A DNA stretch of 64,000 nucleotides from Eretmocerus hayati (taxonomy: Eukaryota; Arthropoda; Insecta; Hymenoptera; Aphelinidae): NCBI GenBank assembly GCA_029851415.1, contig CM056743.1, positions 123,410,305-123,474,304 of the forward strand. The letters are read 5' to 3'. Positions 46,301 to 55,900 of the stretch are shown one piece after another. The notes beneath the pieces were generated by a model, which saw only the letters and a list, made by a program, of their open reading frames with translations, was not told the DNA's origin and did not search any database. Both the position numbers and the translations under genes were made by a program. Positions within the stretch are counted from its first letter, which is position 1; the number at the start of each line of letters is the position of its first letter.

Positions 46301-49151
46301 TTGTAGCATGTGTGCCGCACCATCAAGTCAATTGTGGAATGTATCACTCCCTCTAAGTAAATCAATCGTCTGATCATATATCTGTTATTCCACGATATAG
46401 TATACCATTCGATCGAACTGACACATTTTTTCGTCTACTTTTATTAAAAGGGGTGGCGTTAATCATTACCGAATTTACCAATGAAACTAATAATTTGTGC
46501 CATAACTGGTAGTTCGATATGCCACGCCACGGTGAGCCATGAAAATCATCTTTTGAATAAACTAGTGACCTCATAAATTTCATCCAGTCTTTGAAAAAAA
46601 ATATAAATGGAATCTGAATTGATTCTTTGTACTTAATATAATACTTACAGGGAAATGTTCATGCGCCTCTGTTTCAATTGTTTTTACAGTTCATTCCATA
46701 TCGTCGGATAATTTCGGTATCCATTCAATAATTCATTAAATTTCTCTTTGTTAACGCCAAATGCATAATAATTATCTTCAAACCAATGAATACGTATACG
46801 CTTTCACTCAATATAGACTCTATAAATATCAAATTCTCTTCAAACAGTTGTGTTTCGAATGCACATCAATAAAAATTTTTTCAAACACTAGGTACACGCT
46901 TGAATTGAATAATGTCAATCAGGAACAAATCCGTACTGCCCGGCAGTCGGAATTTATAATAATCGCTCAATAGAAAGCTTCTTTGATTCCTTTAATGAAT
47001 AGCTGCAAGCTCGTTATGCGGCGCTTTGTGAAGCCATAACTTTCAAGTTGGAATTGCGGAAAAACATAGAACATACTTTTGATTCAGCAATGAGATTGTT
47101 GACAAATTGAATTTTTCTATATATTTTCCTCTTTTGCAATTGTATTCCTGATGTACTCTTTTTTCTTTTCATATGATTTTCACATCACATAATCCACTAC
47201 AGAGCTATATTTTTTATTGATGAGTCGTATCATAATTATTCATTTTTCATCTATCTTATATCCAATATACTTTTCTTCCTCGCGGCATTACATGCTCTCA
47301 ATCTTTGGTGCATTTTTCGCAGGCACCGTCAATTTTCAAGATTGTGCGTAGAAATTTCTATACACTTTTTTGTGTGAGTCAGTATTCTTGATGAATTAAT
47401 ATATATGTTCTATATTGGAGTAACTAAAAATATTTGGAAAGAAGAAACTTTAATGCAAACATTTATTTTAGGTATCGAGTACCAATACTTTGGAAAATGT
47501 GTCGTCCATTTCAAATGACGAGTCGAGCAAATGGATGATCGTGATGAGGATGGACTATGACTTTTTGATTCTCTCATCGAAGAACGTTTGATTTCACATA
47601 GATTCCGACACAATAATACGATTAAACCATTTTTTAAATTTACATTTTCCGTCGCCGCACATCATATCAGAATGAATAATAAAATCGATACGGGATGAAG
47701 ATGCGATCGACGCTGCTCTCCCCTATCAAACGATAAGTTAAAAAAAATTATCATCATCGGACTGTTTGACAGTGCTAAATTATTTCGGTCTATATATTAT
47801 ATTATATAATTCATCAGTCGTATGTTTTTTTTGTATGCAATGCGCGATGCGCGATTTGACGTAGACAATTCCTACAATGCAGCTCAAACAGTATTTTCAA
47901 ATCCGTTCGATAATTAATTTATTATAATTAATATATTCGCACCGGTCTCGTTTTGAATATAATATATATAATAATATGTATCATTAAAAAAAGGTGTACA
48001 GCACCGTTTAATTATTTTCCAATCGCAATCGACTTTGCAGGTACGTATGCACGTTTATATTTTGTGAATATGTGTAATATAGTGTATATGACGTGTGAGA
48101 GCGAGAGATGATAATAAAAAATGTATATATAGTCACGACACGAAAACTCGCTTCGGGCGGCTCTGGTAATGGCCCTCGAGGAGAGTTTTCACATATCCGC
48201 AGCCACCCCCTCGCGCCTGCCGTCTCTTTGCACGATGGCGAGCTCAAAAGAGAAGAAAAAGAAAGATAAGTTAGTAGTAAGACAGTGATCTCTGGTTGCG
48301 TATACTTCTCCTTCGACCATTTCTTTCCTGAATTACATTTTTTGGCATCGCGCATTCTTCAGCATCCCTAAAAGCGAGTGCGAGGGTCGTGTGTGCGATG
48401 TTCATAGCATATATCGCTCTCGGAGTTTTACATATTTATTCCGAATGCGTATAGCGATAGCCGGGTTGTGAGCGGTCTTTTTGAAAATTCAACGTTCGAT
48501 CGATGTGGATAGTTAATAACATTCGAACTCACGACGCCTCGTTTTTTGTATACCTCGAAACGCTATATTGACCATCAGGCTATCTCGTCCCGCTCCCGAC
48601 GCGAGAAAATAGCTGCCATCGTCGTCGCACATATAAAATTTCAAGAGATATAATAGAAAAAGGAAGCGGAGCGTTTTATAAGATCGAACTAAAACTTTTT
48701 CCGGGCGTACATATTAATTTTTTTATTTTTTTGTGAGATATTGATTGGATTGAGAGAGATTGAGCCCAGTGAGAGGGGGATGAAACTACCAACCACGCCG
48801 CGCGCTCGGTAGTTGTCGATATATGTTTTTTTTTCTTGGGGGGAATTGGGAAATTGCATTTTCATCGGAGCGCATCAGCCTCTGCGAGAGCGAGGAACAA
48901 GCCATCTCCTCGCTCACGGTGAGGTTATTATCCCCGATGTATGAATAATTTCTTTCTTTTTTTCGTCGCTATATAAGACCGCTAATGAGGATTTTCGTCG
49001 GAGTCGAGCGCGCTCACAGGTCGTCGGCCGAATCGGTCTCGCTTGGGGTGCTGATGCTGGGCACCAAACCCACCGTTGTTGGGCCCGATGATGATCCTGA
49101 TGATGCTTGGAGTGCGAGCTGCTGGCTGCCGCTCGACTCCGGTTGCCTTCG

Positions 49152-49184
49152 TCATTTACTTTTTGGCTTCCTCAGCATCGTCGC
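49152..49184 (-). CDS. Distal alternative terminal exon of the diacylglycerol kinase
   Basis: After the acceptor AATTATACAG on the minus strand come 11 codons reading ATMLRKPKSK and stop. This matches the first codons of the proximal terminal exon ([12 protein letters not shown]) in phase, amino acids and nucleotides: CAACATCGTTGCCTG (proximal, plus strand) against CAGCATCGTCGCCTG. Spliced to the donor at 54323 it would give the kinase a short basic tail. The CpG-rich DNA that follows on the minus strand (48.1-49.1 kb) would be its 3' UTR. Whether it is used is unproven. Confidence 0.6.
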   Translation of the reverse strand, partial: ATMLRKPKSK

Positions 49185-52100
49185 CTGTATAATTATAATC
49201 GTCGTGATAACTCGCGGTAACCCATCAGCAGCGAGACATTTTTTTTTTATTTCTCAAATTCAAGGGTGGCACTCTTTTCCAAAAATTTCAATTTTAGTCC
49301 ATATACCCTTATTGAATTTCACTGACTCTCTCTAGATCAACAATTTTGCTTATCGGTCGCGGCAGTGAAGCATTTGCTCAGCAATTAATATTTCAAAATC
49401 AATTTAATAGCTTTGATATTGGAATATGTATTATGATTGAAATTGCATCGAAGATTATTATCAACAAAGTCTAAAAGGCTGACAAAAAAAGTCTCAAAAA
49501 ATAAAGAATGGGATCAAGATTAATCTATTGAAATTTCTATTTGCCACTCGAATGTTGAAGACGAGCAAAAATAGATATGAACAATGAAAATTTGAATAAA
49601 CCCCAGAGCGTTCACCACATCTTCAATTTGTTTCTACCCGAACTGCTATTGTGCTATAATAATATATTGGACACATTCCAAAATTCGAGATTCGTAGAGT
49701 AGACAATGAAAACTTTCAATTTAGGGAAGAGTCTCTGAGACAACCATTGTCAAATTTTGTGCTGTTTTTGACTAAAAATAGGGTGGATAGATCATCCAGA
49801 ATCCGTGCCGTTTTGGAGCATTTCAGCCACAGCCATCTTCAGGGAGGGGAGGGGGGGGGGGTTCTGCAAAGAACCCCAAAGAAATATTTTCAGATTTTTT
49901 CAAAATCACTCAAAATTTTTTGATTTTCTACAGACCTCCCTGGTGACGGCTCTGGTTGGAGTGCTCGAAAATACTCATCTACTTATGACTATGAATGTTC
50001 TCAACGACTTTTTCTTCAAACATACATTTGATCGAGAACAAAGAGATAATAGAACAACAAGGAAACATCATAACAACCATAATAACATAATTTCGCAATC
50101 ACAGGCTCGAGCGTAAATCAAAAGATCGGGCAAACATCAAGGAATCATACAAAATTACTGTCATCGATATGGTACTAGGATACAACGTGGCTTCCTTATT
50201 GTAGACTACACAATGCAATAGCGCTCGAACAATTGGACGTATATTAAATATGCAGCCAAATTTACAATTTTAATTTAATACAACTCCCCATGTATTATAC
50301 AGATTCGTGAGCAATGTTCAAGGAAGAGGAATTTGAAGGGAAATACTTGGTCAAATACTTGACGGATACCACTGAAATATTTCTTGAAGCAAATTTTGAT
50401 TTTCAGAGCATATTAGCCTCAACATAAACTGTACTGCAAATATACTTCCCAATAAATTATCAATAAAATTGTAAAGATTTGATGCACATTGAGGTACAGA
50501 AATGATCTCTTTTACTTCAAAAAAATGAAGATTTCCAAAGGAAGTGTGGGATGCAATATCATTTACACCAACGATCAGGTAACAAATAACAAAAGTCTAC
50601 ATCAGAACGCAACCAAAATGGCAACCTAGATGATTACTCCTCAGTGTTAGTTGACTGAGTCAAGTAAGAGAGAAGGTAAATAGAAAGAGATGAACTGAGA
50701 TGGGAAGAAGAAAGAAGAATTGCCAGAGAAAAGTGACACCAAGGAAGAAGGCGAAGCTCATAGTTTTCTAGGAAGACAATCGCTTGGAAACGAGAGAATA
50801 ATGTCCGAGATGCACAAAAAGCCGGAGCAATGATGGAAAGAGCAAAATGAGCGGGTACGTGTTAGACTCGTGTATTCGCATGCACGTTTTATTCTTTTTC
50901 TTGGCAACGGATATAGCCTCTTTTTTGCTCGATAATACAACGACGATGCGGGTGTGGCATATGGTTTTGTTAAAACCCGTCGCTGTGGGCATGGTCAGAA
51001 TGATAATTATTGCCACATTGAGAAAAATTATCACGTGCGGTGAAAGTAATGTTGTTGAAATCTCCAGAATAAGCTCATCATACTTCTCCCTGCTCGCGCT
51101 ATATTGTGAGCTTTTAAAGATGAATTTCACCCGCAAAATGGTTTTCAAAAACAAAGAATTTTCCACCAAAATGAGCGATTTTCGTGTCAGTCCTGCCTTT
51201 CATTTTAACACGAATCAAGGTAGAAAAAAGTGTTTTTCTCATTATGTAGTGTATGAAAATTCGTGAAAAAATTAATGGCAACTTCAATGATCTTTTACTA
51301 GAGGAAAAATTATCTTGAAGCAAGAAAGACTATTCTAAAACCACGAATAATATAAAAAGATGGTGAAAAATTGAAATTAGCAGGGAACTTTTTTCTTCCA
51401 ACGTCCGTAAATCAGACGAAGAGGAGACAATGAACCCCTATTCCCTGAATTTACTTGAGGTTTACACAGCTATTTTTGGAAGATTTGTGCATTTCCAGAA
51501 TTCACCAGAGTGGTAAATTTTGATTTATCGAATACTTGAACTTTCGGATAGTCTATTTTGAAGCATGAAATTGTTGTAATCACTCAAGCACCAACTGTCG
51601 AAGCTTACGAAGAATTTTACTACGGTCAAAACTGGAGAAATTTTTTTGATTTTCAAAAACCTTTGGTCGAATATCTTGATTGGCTCGTAGAAAACTTTGC
51701 GTAAAGCACTGACTAGCTGTGACATAAATGACTTTGTTGAATTAGAACGTTTTTGAAAGATAATTCCTTCCATCACCCACGATATAACTCTACTTTCATG
51801 TAGAAATATTCGTCTAGGTGGGTGAAAAAACGATTTAAAGCTCAATTTCATCCCTAACGAAAAGTAAATGGAATATGCATTGCGTTGCGGAAATGCACGA
51901 GACAGTATTTTTTCATCATTGAACAAATAAATGAAGATGATAACGTATCTGTAGAGTAGGAATTGAGTTCAAAATGTCTCAAAAGAATTGGAGATGGGCA
52001 CTGACCCCGATGATCAACAAGACGAGCAAAGCAATTCCAAAAAAAATGATCTTAAAGTATGAAATACGGGGGAATGATTGAAATCCCTCCATTAATGTGA

Positions 52101-52938
52101 GGCTACTAATTTTTAAAATTATTCACAAGATCAGCTCTTTGGGTTTCGAATAGTAAGTAGTGTACAAAATGACACGAAAGCCAAAACTCGTGCAGAACAT
52201 CAGAATAAATCAACATTAACTCTTTGACTAGATTCAAAATAAATATATCTAATCTACAAGGAATACAAAAATAAATGTACATTATTATACTCAAGGTTGG
52301 TTATAATATGATTGGAAATAGTAACCGAGTGATTATGTGGTGAGTGCAAATTTGTAGAACAGAAACACAAAACACTTGCAGGAAAAAAAAATAATTCTTG
52401 GTATTCTGTTTTCAAGCATTTAGCGAGGGCCTAAAAAACCAATTCTCTCTTACTTTTACCCAAAAAAATATTTTCTCTTCGATCTAACGTAGGGATCTAT
52501 TCTTATTAGAAATGAGAATGGAAATATAGTTTTGATCATTAAAAGAAGATCTCCACTTTGTGATTCACATTCAAACTTTGTACTCTTGATTAAGTAGATG
52601 GGACAACAAAATATCGTACTTTATCATCCTTGGCATCAATCGTGGATATTCCGTCGCATTGAAAAAATATTTCTCCAGATCACATACACAACACATCAAA
52701 TTTTCAACCAACTCCATACTCATCTCTCATACTATCTAATAGGTATAATTTATATGTGGCAATTAGCTAATCGACTCTACTCTCTCACTTTTTAGTAAAC
52801 GTAATTTTGATCCTCACGATAGTCCTATATGTTTTTGACAAGATAAAGTATGTCAACGAATTTGTTAGCATCGAAGAGGCCCTGACACTTTTTGAACTAA
52901 TGTCAATCACTACAATCTAGGATTCGCAGTTAGATCAT
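49185..52938. other. Gap between the two kinase terminal exons
   Basis: Intron of the distal isoform and 3' UTR of the proximal one. Apart from the small inverted repeat at 49811-49972 I see only AT-rich DNA with short ORFs lacking protein features. Confidence 0.5.
49811..49972. mobile_element. Small relative of the giant foldback element
   Basis: TTTTGGAGCATTTCAGCCACA, then CAGGGAGGGG, faces CCTCCCTGGTGACGGCTCTGG and GGAGTGCTCGAAAA. The order GGAGCATTTC-GCC-GTCACCAGGG-AATTTTT repeats the ends of the 23478-25670 element with almost all the interior missing. Confidence 0.6.
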
Positions 52939-55900
52939 CTAATCGTTTGTGCTCTTGCCCGCCTCTCCGTTTGCGGATAAAATTGAAGGTTCGGTATTTC
53001 GACGCTTGACCTTACTTTTCTTCAACATCGTTGCCTGAGGTGAACAGAGAAAGACAAGACAGTATTTTTATTAGATTTATGGGTAGAAACGTGACAAACA
53101 GAATGCAAAAAAAAGCACAAAAAATAATCGGACGATAACAAGGGTAACACTGCGTAAGTTGACCAAAGTTCCAGGAATAGTTGAAGCTCTGACAGGCCTC
53201 AGCAAGCCCTTGAAAGTAATATTCAAATTTGAATGAGCTTCCTACTTCTTGGGACATTTTATAAGGATCGTGGAGGTGTTATTTAATGAAAAAATTGCAT
53301 ATGACAGACATCGAGAGAAAAAAGTCGCCTGGACCCAGATTTGAACTGGGGGCCTTGTTCACATCGGGAAAGACACTCTACCAGCTGAGCTATCCAGGGC
53401 TCCAGGAACTCTTGTCTCGATGTCATGCATATGCGCGCCTTTTCTTTGCCGAAGGCGCCTGAAATTTTTTCATTAAATAACACCTCCACGATCAAACCCG
53501 ATCGTTAATTTCTCAATTAATCGATCTCAAACTCGAGATTGATAGAGAAATAAAATTAGTCCTCCGATGCCGATTTACGAATATAATACCATTTGAAACA
53601 TAAGAGGACGAGTCAAGTTCGAAAAGTGTAACCTGATTTTATAAGGAATTCGTCTTATATTTCAATGGAGTATATCTTCAATTTTTTTCATTTATTCATT
53701 TCCATAAAATGAGAGCCGAATAAATTTATCACTTGTTTCATTTTAGTGCAATTAAAAAGGCAGTTTCTTGATTATAATTATGAATTTTTCACCAAACTAG
53801 ATTTTAACAACAACACGCTCTGTGTGAACTTGGGAATTGTTTCAAAAACTTGTGGTCAGAACTTTGTTGGAAAGTACAGGGGATTTTGCATGGATGAGAT
53901 GCATTACGGATATATTCTGTGAATCATGAAAGATTGTGGGTCGAAGGAATCATAACGAACAATGAAACCATAGCTCAAGACAAACACGCAAGCTGTAACG
54001 AATACATCACAAATCATGTAAAAAAAACGTAGAGGTATTCAATAGGGAACGACATTCTTGGGATGCATATGAACATTTACATCGTGCAACACTTGAATAG
54101 ACAGTTCTTTACACAAATGTCTCTGATCGTATTCATGGATTTTTATGATTTGAAATTTAAATTTTTTGAAAAAGTAATATATCTTTTAGAACTCATTGCA
54201 ACTTAGGTATCAGTTGATGACTTCTCGCAAAGTCAGTGCAAGAGATCACTCTGATATAATAATTTGATCCATCAGTACGATTGAGATAATATTTTAAAGA
54301 TAAATTCAAAGTGTTTCTGTACCTTTAATGCAGATCTCAGCACAACAACGTCCCCAGGACATTGAAGCCAGGGTTCACCATCGACTTGGACGGGTATGTC
54401 CGAGTTCATGTGAATTTTGATGTGACCTCCCTGTGACAATAGAATTGCAGAATGCTTCATGTGTCAAGTATTTTGTGAAGCCTTGACCAGCAATGCGCCA
54501 TGATGATTGGGAAATATTTTCGAAAACGTTTTTTTTTTTTTTCGTTTTTGGAAGATCGACAAACTATTAATGCTATGGCTTCAGAGCGGAAAGGAAACCA
54601 AGTCGATTATATTTTTAAGGAATCGAATCAAAAACAGTGATCGTGTGCAAAGACGAACTCTTCGCAAAATACCCTAAATAGTTTCATCGCTTTTTCACAA
54701 GACTTCCAAATGAAAGTTTTATAAAGGTGTCCACTAGACTCATCAGTTTACAGTAATTCATTTCGATCAATTAAAAATCTAATAACATTTGAGAGTGGGT
54801 TGCAAACCTGAGCTATGCGCACGCCGTTTCGGAGGCCCGATTGGATCTGACCAAGGTGAATGACGCCGGTCACGCCAACGACCTCTAGTAATCCGTCCCA
54901 GTGATTTGGCTTATTGAACTGGTCCTCTTTGTCAGGGCCCCATGGATTGGCACCGGAACCCCAGCTACAATCAAACAAGTCAGATTTTGATCGGATACTA
55001 TAGTAAATCTTTTTGTGCATGATGGTTTGGATGGGTTTCGGGGAGATTTCCCCCTCTGATCCCAAATCAAATCGATAGGAATTCATAGTTTAAAAAAGGA
55101 ATATGATGAACGTTACAATTCGCAGACAGCACCTATAGACAGTTAGCAAGTTTTTATTGAAATTCTCAGATCTTATGTTTCCAAACATTTAGTGCCCCAA
55201 AACACATGCTCACGAAAAAATATCTCTATTGAAGTTTCGAGGGGCATACCTGAGGATATTGAGGATGATGATACCCTCAACCTGCGGCAGATCAACTACC
55301 TTGCCATCGACTTCGAGCCTGATTTCTCTGTGCAAGTCTTTGCAAGGCTTCCGATTGACCATCTTGCGCAGACCCATTTTGAAATATACGCTCTTATTGT
55401 GCAGCCGGCTGTTGAATTTGTTAGGATTCTCCTCGCGCGCATTGTGGAAGTCCAGACAGAGTGCAGCATCGAGGCCAATTCCAAAATAGTTGTTCATGAC
55501 GAATATCTGCGTATTGTCCTCGCTGGTTGATGCGGCAACTGTAATCACCGATAAAATTATTTATCATCAATAAAATTCAAATGGATGACTTTAGAAAGTG
55601 GTATTTGAATTCTCGATGAAGTTAGCCGTTTGGAAGGATCTAAATGAATTTTGAAAGTAGGTTGGAAACGAAAAGTTGGAGGTAAAATATACAAAACTTT
55701 TTTCAAAATCAGTAATTAAAAAAAACAGTGTTACCTGTATACCTTTGATCTACTTACATTAAAATGTAAGTAGATCAAAGGTATACAAGTAACACTAATT
55801 ATTGACTAGAGAGTGAAAGAACCAAGAGAGCGTACCGGCATTGTTAGGCACGAGGGCCTGCTTGTCCTGCCTATCTTCCTGCTTCTCCTCAGGATGGAAA

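What the first reader, a model, noticed from the sequence alone, without database searches (positions are those of the whole stretch)
49152..53034. Two homologous alternative terminal exons of a diacylglycerol kinase
Seen: two minus-strand segments, 3.8 kb apart, each with an acceptor followed in the same phase by A-T-M-L-[KR]-K and a basic run ([12 protein letters not shown]... for 32 codons; ATMLRKPKSK then stop). The plus-strand word CA[AG]CATCGT[TC]GCCTG is common to both. Both fit the donor at 54323 (phase 0). Inference: exon duplication gives two C-termini, one 21 residues longer with RRNTEPS, a possible basophilic-kinase site. The switch could also choose between two 3' UTRs. The distal tail opens a CpG-rich stretch unlike the AT-rich surroundings.
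Basis: partly seen in the sequence, partly recalled or inferred. Interest (0 to 1): 0.75.

Follow-up and report, generated by a model that had tools for sequence, protein, structure and literature searches.

The report
Stop-gated tail of an insect kinase
A wasp gene for a lipid-signalling kinase can end in either of two old, related final exons, and in this wasp one of them is interrupted by a stop codon after which the old protein sequence is still recognisable, which suggests that ribosomes may sometimes read through it.

Summary
In detail: acceptors 53034 and 49184, phase-0 donor 54323, and two ATML[KR]K tails; the shared 15-base word occurs twice (expected 0.01). The window matches Eretmocerus hayati; the gene is diacylglycerol kinase theta. 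The two terminal exons are an isoform pair widespread in insects and already present in annotated proteins.

The tail reads ATMLRKPKSK-TGA-CGA, and the frame continues RRQPESSGSQQLALQASSG...SETDSADDL. Ants, bees and sawflies code straight through (..KMKRRNTESSMQLALQAAPSS..). Nasonia and Phymastichus proteins also end at ATMLRKPKSK, so the stop is probably shared by families separated about 120 Mya. Against hymenopteran tails, the post-stop sequence scores first of 6,869 stops in the window. It ends acidic-x-Leu, resembling the [TDE]-x-F ends of 102 of 102 F-ending distal rows.

Best reading: a nonsense codon entered an ancestral coding exon, and the extension persists through UGA-C readthrough. 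Readthrough is inferred: no other chalcid DNA, RNA or ribosome data could be examined, and frame-openness, codon-usage and RNA-fold tests gave no support.

The parts
54323..54430 (-). last shared exon of DGK theta ([17 protein letters not shown]), phase-0 donor after 54323
52939..53034 (-). proximal terminal exon, coding part: [31 protein letters not shown] and TAG
   Evidence: identical to the end of annotated protein P0001
49155..49184 (-). distal terminal exon up to the first stop: ATMLRKPKSK
   Evidence: Nasonia P0007 and Phymastichus P0063 end with the same ten residues
49152..49154 (-). first in-frame stop, TGA followed by C (TGA CGA): candidate readthrough codon
49017..49151 (-). open frame after the stop, 45 residues, RRQPESSGSQQLALQASSG..SETDSADDL; first part homologous to sense-coded hymenopteran distal tails
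49014..49016 (-). second in-frame stop, TGA
48722..48727 (-). first AATAAA after the distal exon, possible poly(A) signal
   Evidence: sequence match only

Best explanation
The DGK theta gene of Eretmocerus hayati ends in one of two homologous alternative terminal exons, an arrangement found in many insects. In the lineage of this wasp, Nasonia and Phymastichus, an in-frame UGA followed by C arose inside the distal exon. Splicing to the distal exon then gives mainly a kinase ending ATMLRKPKSK. A fraction of ribosomes reads through the UGA and adds 45 residues, which keep part of the old distal tail (RR..ESS..QLALQA) and an acidic-x-hydrophobic carboxyl end that may act as a PDZ-type ligand. 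Shown: the exon pair and its spread in insects, the TGA, and similarity of the frame after it to sense-coded tails. Inferred: that the stop is shared at the DNA level, that readthrough occurs and is selected, and that the end binds a partner.
For: Anchored alignment of what follows every stop codon in the window (6,869 on both strands) to 18 hymenopteran post-RR tails: this site scores 34.2, the next 21.8; 0 of 5,000 shuffles of the extension reach 34.2, largest 26.7. A profile of 20 hymenopteran distal tails run over 2,896 stop-to-stop ORFs ranks the proximal exon first, the post-TGA frame second (model positions 13-29, E 0.046) and the pre-TGA frame third (positions 1-10, E 0.067), adjacent and in one frame; the next ORF has E 1.0. 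Nasonia and Phymastichus end at the same residue, and one dated tree puts the Aphelinidae split near 120 Mya (PMC13116730, passages; its authors call the dates preliminary). Without selection, at least 11 of 18 identities survive in 2.8% of runs at 0.5 substitutions per site and 0.2% at 0.75; observed 12 of 18 with a two-residue gap. The frame ends D-D-L: [DE]-x-hydrophobic ends 49 of 2,163 window ORFs, [TDE]-x-hydrophobic 103 of 2,163. TGA-C is the context favoured in insect readthrough (PMC7826183, passages).
Against: With a profile of the post-RR part alone the frame is second but at E 0.68, hardly apart from a chance ORF at 0.77. Without the two-residue gap only 8 of 18 positions agree, and agreement with the nearest sense-coded wasps seen is 7 of 18 for Leptopilina and 9 of 18 for Cephus. 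The open frame is no evidence: 3,568 of 5,000 shuffles are open. Codon usage hardly separates the frames (-5.93, -6.37, -5.99) and GC by codon position (0.58, 0.64, 0.67) is unlike the core exons (0.58, 0.36, 0.58). RNA after the stop folds no better than shuffles (z -1.24, 24 of 200 as good). The enriched 8-mer CAGCAGCA of fly readthrough regions (PMC5100048) is absent from the 135 bases. The annotated E. hayati protein has the proximal tail, so use of the distal exon is unproven. The stop codons of Nasonia and Phymastichus were not seen as DNA.
Confidence: 0.58

Rival explanations
1. Plain truncation: the TGA is an efficient stop, the distal isoform ends ATMLRKPKSK, and what follows is a relic of the old coding exon, now 3' UTR. 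The splice switch then chooses between a 31- and a 10-residue tail and between two 3' UTRs.
For: The ten residues before the stop are identical in three chalcids. Single-species coding tests on the extension give no support for translation, and residues beyond about the twentieth have no clear counterpart in the other tails read (alignment).
Against: If the stop is about 120 My old, as the shared end implies, an untranslated relic should have lost its similarity: at 0.75 substitutions per site 0.2% of simulated runs keep 11 of 18 identities (no indels modelled, and the true neutral rate was not measured).
Confidence: 0.27
2. The stop is bypassed in the RNA, by splicing from a donor-like site at 49159 (AAA|GTAAAT) or by A-to-I editing of UGA to UGG.
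For: The site scores 4.6 on a matrix of the gene's ten donors, close to the true donor at 54323 (5.0); acceptor-like AGs with at least 60% pyrimidines lie near 49107, 49043, 48883, 48881 and 48836.
Against: 6.5% of all minus-strand GTs in the window score as well. Splicing to any of the listed acceptors would discard most or all of the conserved block. Editing leaves no trace in DNA and was not testable.
Confidence: 0.08
3. The sequence after the stop is kept for another reason, such as an RNA element, while the peptide similarity is a by-product.
For: The stretch is GC-rich and foldable (-37.8 kcal/mol).
Against: Folding does not exceed shuffles (z -1.24); Rfam at E up to 1 over 47000-54500 lists only a tRNA at 53326-53399; the similarity is to amino-acid sequence in the right frame.
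Confidence: 0.06
4. The UGA encodes selenocysteine.
For: It is an in-frame UGA inside a conserved frame.
Against: Nasonia and Apis have lost selenoproteins and the ability to make them (PMC2500217, passages). Rfam lists nothing but a tRNA in 47000-54500 (that Rfam holds SECIS models is recalled).
Confidence: 0.01

Closest known systems
Annotated alternative C-termini of insect diacylglycerol kinase theta (for example Odontomachus brunneus isoform X9, proximal tail, P0022, and X8, distal tail, P0081)
   Same: Same gene, same two tail types after ..LKSALK.
   Different: There the distal tail is sense-coded throughout and ends ..DAEIF; here it is cut by a TGA after ten residues.
Insect stop-codon readthrough genes (Drosophila and Anopheles, PMC5100048; Bombus, PMC7826183)
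   Same: First stop TGA followed by C; amino-acid similarity continues in frame after it.
   Different: Here the stop lies inside what other insects code as sense, and in one of two alternative terminal exons. The conservation test across close species, by which those genes were found, could not be run. PMC5100048 excludes stops present only in close relatives as recent nonsense changes (passages).
DGK zeta recruited through a C-terminal PDZ interaction (title of Yakubchyk et al. 2005, seen only in the reference list of PMC5021689)
   Same: A diacylglycerol kinase whose carboxyl end is used for recruitment.
   Different: Different DGK type; for insect DGK theta there is only a motif-like end, with no binding data.

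Membership tests
Diacylglycerol kinase theta | DAGK catalytic and accessory domains, RA domain and RBD_DGKtheta domain | tested here: met
   Pfam on P0001, all four above the curated cut-offs; window exons encode the matching part
Diacylglycerol kinase theta | N-terminal C1 domains | tested here: inconclusive
   Not among the five families found on P0001 and none recognised upstream in the window (motif scan); relatives carry PF00130; the 5' part may lie beyond 64000
Alternative terminal exon pair | Two homologous exons, each with an acceptor in phase with the same donor, and both tail types present in relatives | tested here: met
Alternative terminal exon pair | Both junctions used in RNA of this species | not testable with these tools
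   No reads held; P0001 has the proximal tail
Insect stop-codon readthrough gene | TGA first stop with C as next base (favoured, not required) | tested here: met
   TGA C at 49154-49151
Insect stop-codon readthrough gene | Protein-coding signature after the stop across related species | tested here: inconclusive
   Similarity to sense-coded tails met; codon-level conservation among chalcids not testable, no chalcid DNA held; single-species tests uninformative
Insect stop-codon readthrough gene | Stop conserved in relatives that are not close, excluding recent nonsense change | tested here: inconclusive
   Two chalcid proteins of other families end at the same residue; their codons were not seen, and Trichogramma, Copidosoma and Ceratosolen rows show only proximal tails
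Insect stop-codon readthrough gene | Extended protein or footprints detected | not testable with these tools
   No ribosome or mass-spectrometry data held
C-terminal PDZ ligand | [STDE]-x-hydrophobic at the free carboxyl end | tested here: met
   D-D-L in the extension; [TDE]-x-F in 102 of 102 F-ending distal-type rows, 34 distinct tails; motif classes are recalled
C-terminal PDZ ligand | Binding to a PDZ domain | not testable with these tools
   none
Selenoprotein | SECIS element | tested here: not met
   Rfam over 47000-54500 at E up to 1: only a tRNA

The most novel reading that the evidence does not exclude
In chalcid wasps a nonsense mutation inside a deeply conserved alternative exon was domesticated more than 100 My ago. 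It turned a constitutive DGK theta tail (basic stretch plus a putative PDZ-ligand end) into one gated by UGA readthrough, so that a translational switch sits on top of a splice switch. This would be a datable case of readthrough born by a stop arising within coding sequence rather than by leakage past an old stop.
Probability: 0.38. Interest if true: 0.62.

Novelty: new member of a known kind. Interest (0 to 1): 0.45.

Why it matters
A stop placed inside a tail that other insects code straight through gives a before/after comparison for how readthrough genes arise: the constitutive tail can be studied in bees or beetles and the gated one in chalcids. Catalogues built from aligned stops set such stops aside when only close relatives share them (PMC5100048, passages). 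The data also show that DGK theta, a regulator of diacylglycerol signalling, has two old carboxyl ends in insects, one of them with a [TDE]-x-F terminus in every F-ending distal row read. The listings of the searches made on this show no paper on it; most listed papers were not opened and no supplements could be read.

Tried and rejected
Single-species coding tests on the extension (frame openness, codon usage, GC by codon position) gave no support. RNA folding after the stop: no signal. SECIS or other RNA family: only a tRNA. Protein search scored on the last 75 residues with X at the stop: 465 candidates, 36 hits at E up to 10; five are chalcids (P0001, P0003, P0006, P0007, P0063) and none continues past the stop, but the word filter also missed Trichogramma and all ants and bees, so this absence means little. 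Search scored on the end of Nasonia P0007 (120 of 1,241 listed): Trichogramma, Copidosoma and Ceratosolen appear with proximal tails only, so their distal exons remain unknown. A small intron removing the TGA was considered and set low. A published neutral rate for Nasonia was sought and not found (no paper). Literature: ten searches were seen as listings. Of the papers cited, only passages found by term were seen (PMC5100048, PMC7826183, PMC9984522, PMC2500217, PMC5021689, PMC13116730, PMC10482854); none was read whole.
Full report
What is there. On the minus strand, ten exons between 61760 and 54323 with consistent splice phases encode part of diacylglycerol kinase theta. The translation with the proximal tail matches Eretmocerus hayati QAD02_004047 (P0001) at 100% identity over the query, and Pfam finds catalytic, accessory, RA and RBD_DGKtheta domains on P0001. 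The last shared exon ends ..VVVLRSALK at a phase-0 donor (54323). Two acceptors follow. The one at 53034 gives [31 protein letters not shown] and TAG; the one at 49184 gives ATMLRKPKSK and TGA. The shared 15-base word occurs twice, 0.01 expected.

The pair is ordinary and old. I read the carboxyl ends of 234 proteins from three searches (best 120 of 4,282, 36 of 36, best 120 of 1,241; overlapping, with several isoform rows per species). By the number of residues between ATML and the RR (RW in P0128), 111 have six (proximal type), 120 have eight (distal type), 2 end at KPKSK, and 1 (P0002) has no ATML tail. Both types were retrieved from Hymenoptera, beetles, a termite (Cryptotermes), a katydid (Anabrus), a lacewing (Chrysoperla) and mosquitoes. 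A horseshoe crab row (Tachypleus P0128) has the longer spacing, and Limulus, tick and spider rows the shorter, so the duplication may predate insects; I did not test this further. Of the 120 distal-type rows, 102 (34 distinct tails; insects and one unnamed entry) end in F, and all 102 have T, D or E two residues before it. The other 18 are rotifers, a priapulid, a horseshoe crab, a nemertean, an annelid and four unnamed entries (names). Such ends have the form of a PDZ ligand; the motif classes are recalled and binding is untested.

After the TGA the distal frame reads RRQPESSGSQQLALQASSGSSSGPTTVGLVPSISTPSETDSADDL and then TGA. The ant exon reads ATMLKKTKGKMKRRNTESSMQLALQAAPSSDPDEDIF. So M-K before RR is replaced by one stop codon, and RR..ESS..QLALQA is still there. 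A profile of 20 distinct hymenopteran distal tails, run over 2,896 stop-to-stop ORFs of both strands, ranks the proximal exon first, the post-TGA frame second (positions 13-29, E 0.046) and the pre-TGA frame third (positions 1-10, E 0.067); the next ORF has E 1.0. A profile of the post-RR part alone is weaker: the frame is second at E 0.68, and a chance ORF has 0.77. In an alignment anchored at the stop, with every stop codon of both strands as control (6,869), this site scores 34.2 and the next 21.8, and 0 of 5,000 shuffles of the extension reach it.

Age. Nasonia P0007 and Phymastichus P0063 end exactly at ATMLRKPKSK, so the stop is most simply shared by Pteromalidae, Eulophidae and Aphelinidae (family names of the first two recalled); their codons were not seen. 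A dated tree with E. hayati puts the Aphelinidae split near 120 Mya, sister to the other chalcids except Trichogrammatidae and Encyrtidae (PMC13116730, passages; its authors call the dates preliminary). Crown Chalcidoidea is 168.6 Ma in PMC9984522 (passages). In a neutral simulation of an 18-residue block without indels (4,000 runs per value), at least 11 identities remain in 11% of runs at 0.4 substitutions per site, 2.8% at 0.5 and 0.2% at 0.75. Observed against the ant and bee form: 12 of 18 with one two-residue gap chosen to fit, 8 of 18 without it; sense-coded Leptopilina and Cephus keep 13 of 18 each, and the E. hayati block agrees with them at 7 and 9 of 18. The neutral rate was not measured, so this argument is suggestive only.

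Mechanism. UGA followed by C is the context favoured in insect readthrough: the bumblebee study infers at least 306 of 851 candidates and uses TGA-C enrichment to estimate its error (PMC7826183, passages). In flies and mosquitoes older cases are richer in TGA, while the excess of C after it is not significant (PMC5100048, passages). The most likely reading is that the distal isoform mostly ends ATMLRKPKSK and that leakage supplies a minor form ending ..DSADDL, which keeps the QLALQA stretch and an acidic-x-hydrophobic end. Such an end ([DE]-x-hydrophobic) closes 49 of 2,163 window ORFs, and the looser [TDE] form 103 of 2,163, so it is modest support. The RR.TE motif of both tail types reads RRQPE here, so the basophilic-kinase idea does not carry over to the extension.

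Results against. The open frame means nothing: 3,568 of 5,000 shuffles of the 135 bases are open, and the other two frames are open over long runs too. Codon usage hardly separates the frames, and GC by codon position (0.58, 0.64, 0.67) is unlike the core exons (0.58, 0.36, 0.58). RNA after the stop folds no better than shuffles (z -1.24; 24 of 200 as good). CAGCAGCA, the 8-mer enriched in fly readthrough regions (PMC5100048), is absent; CAGCAGC is present (sequence). Beyond about residue 20 the extension has no clear counterpart. P0001 has the proximal tail, and the distal acceptor has 47% pyrimidines in -20 to -4 against 88% for the proximal one, although two of the ten shared-exon acceptors are also at 47%, so the distal form may be rare. 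An assembly error is unlikely: the published genome used HiFi reads with 0.01% heterozygosity (PMC10482854, passages), and two other species end at the same residue.

Verdict. The alternative exons are real, widespread and already annotated in relatives; that part is ordinary. The interrupted distal exon is the interesting part: a probable readthrough gene of a known kind, with an unusual origin if confirmed.

Noticed in passing
53266-53493 (tRNA-like part 53326-53399, minus strand): A tRNA-like sequence (ARAGORN: tRNA-Ile, anticodon GAT; Rfam tRNA 38.4 bits against a cut-off of 29) sits between two 34-base inverted repeats, 97% identical (53266-53299 and 53460-53493), in the intron before the proximal exon. 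Probably a tRNA-derived mobile element; no other copy of it in the window.
   Followed up: partly
50893 and 50279 (minus strand): The first AATAAA or ATTAAA after the proximal stop lies about 2 kb downstream, against about 290 bases after the second distal stop (48727), so the two forms may differ strongly in 3' UTR length.
   Followed up: no
P0121-P0151 (not in the window): Rotifers, a nemertean, an annelid and a priapulid carry only the longer-spaced tail among the rows retrieved, while ticks and spiders show the shorter one, so the short proximal type may be an arthropod addition.
   Followed up: no
P0002 (not in the window): The Heliothis virescens entry has no ATML tail and ends ..LKSVFACARLPVSKQGSN, which looks like read-through into an intron or a misannotation.
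   Followed up: no
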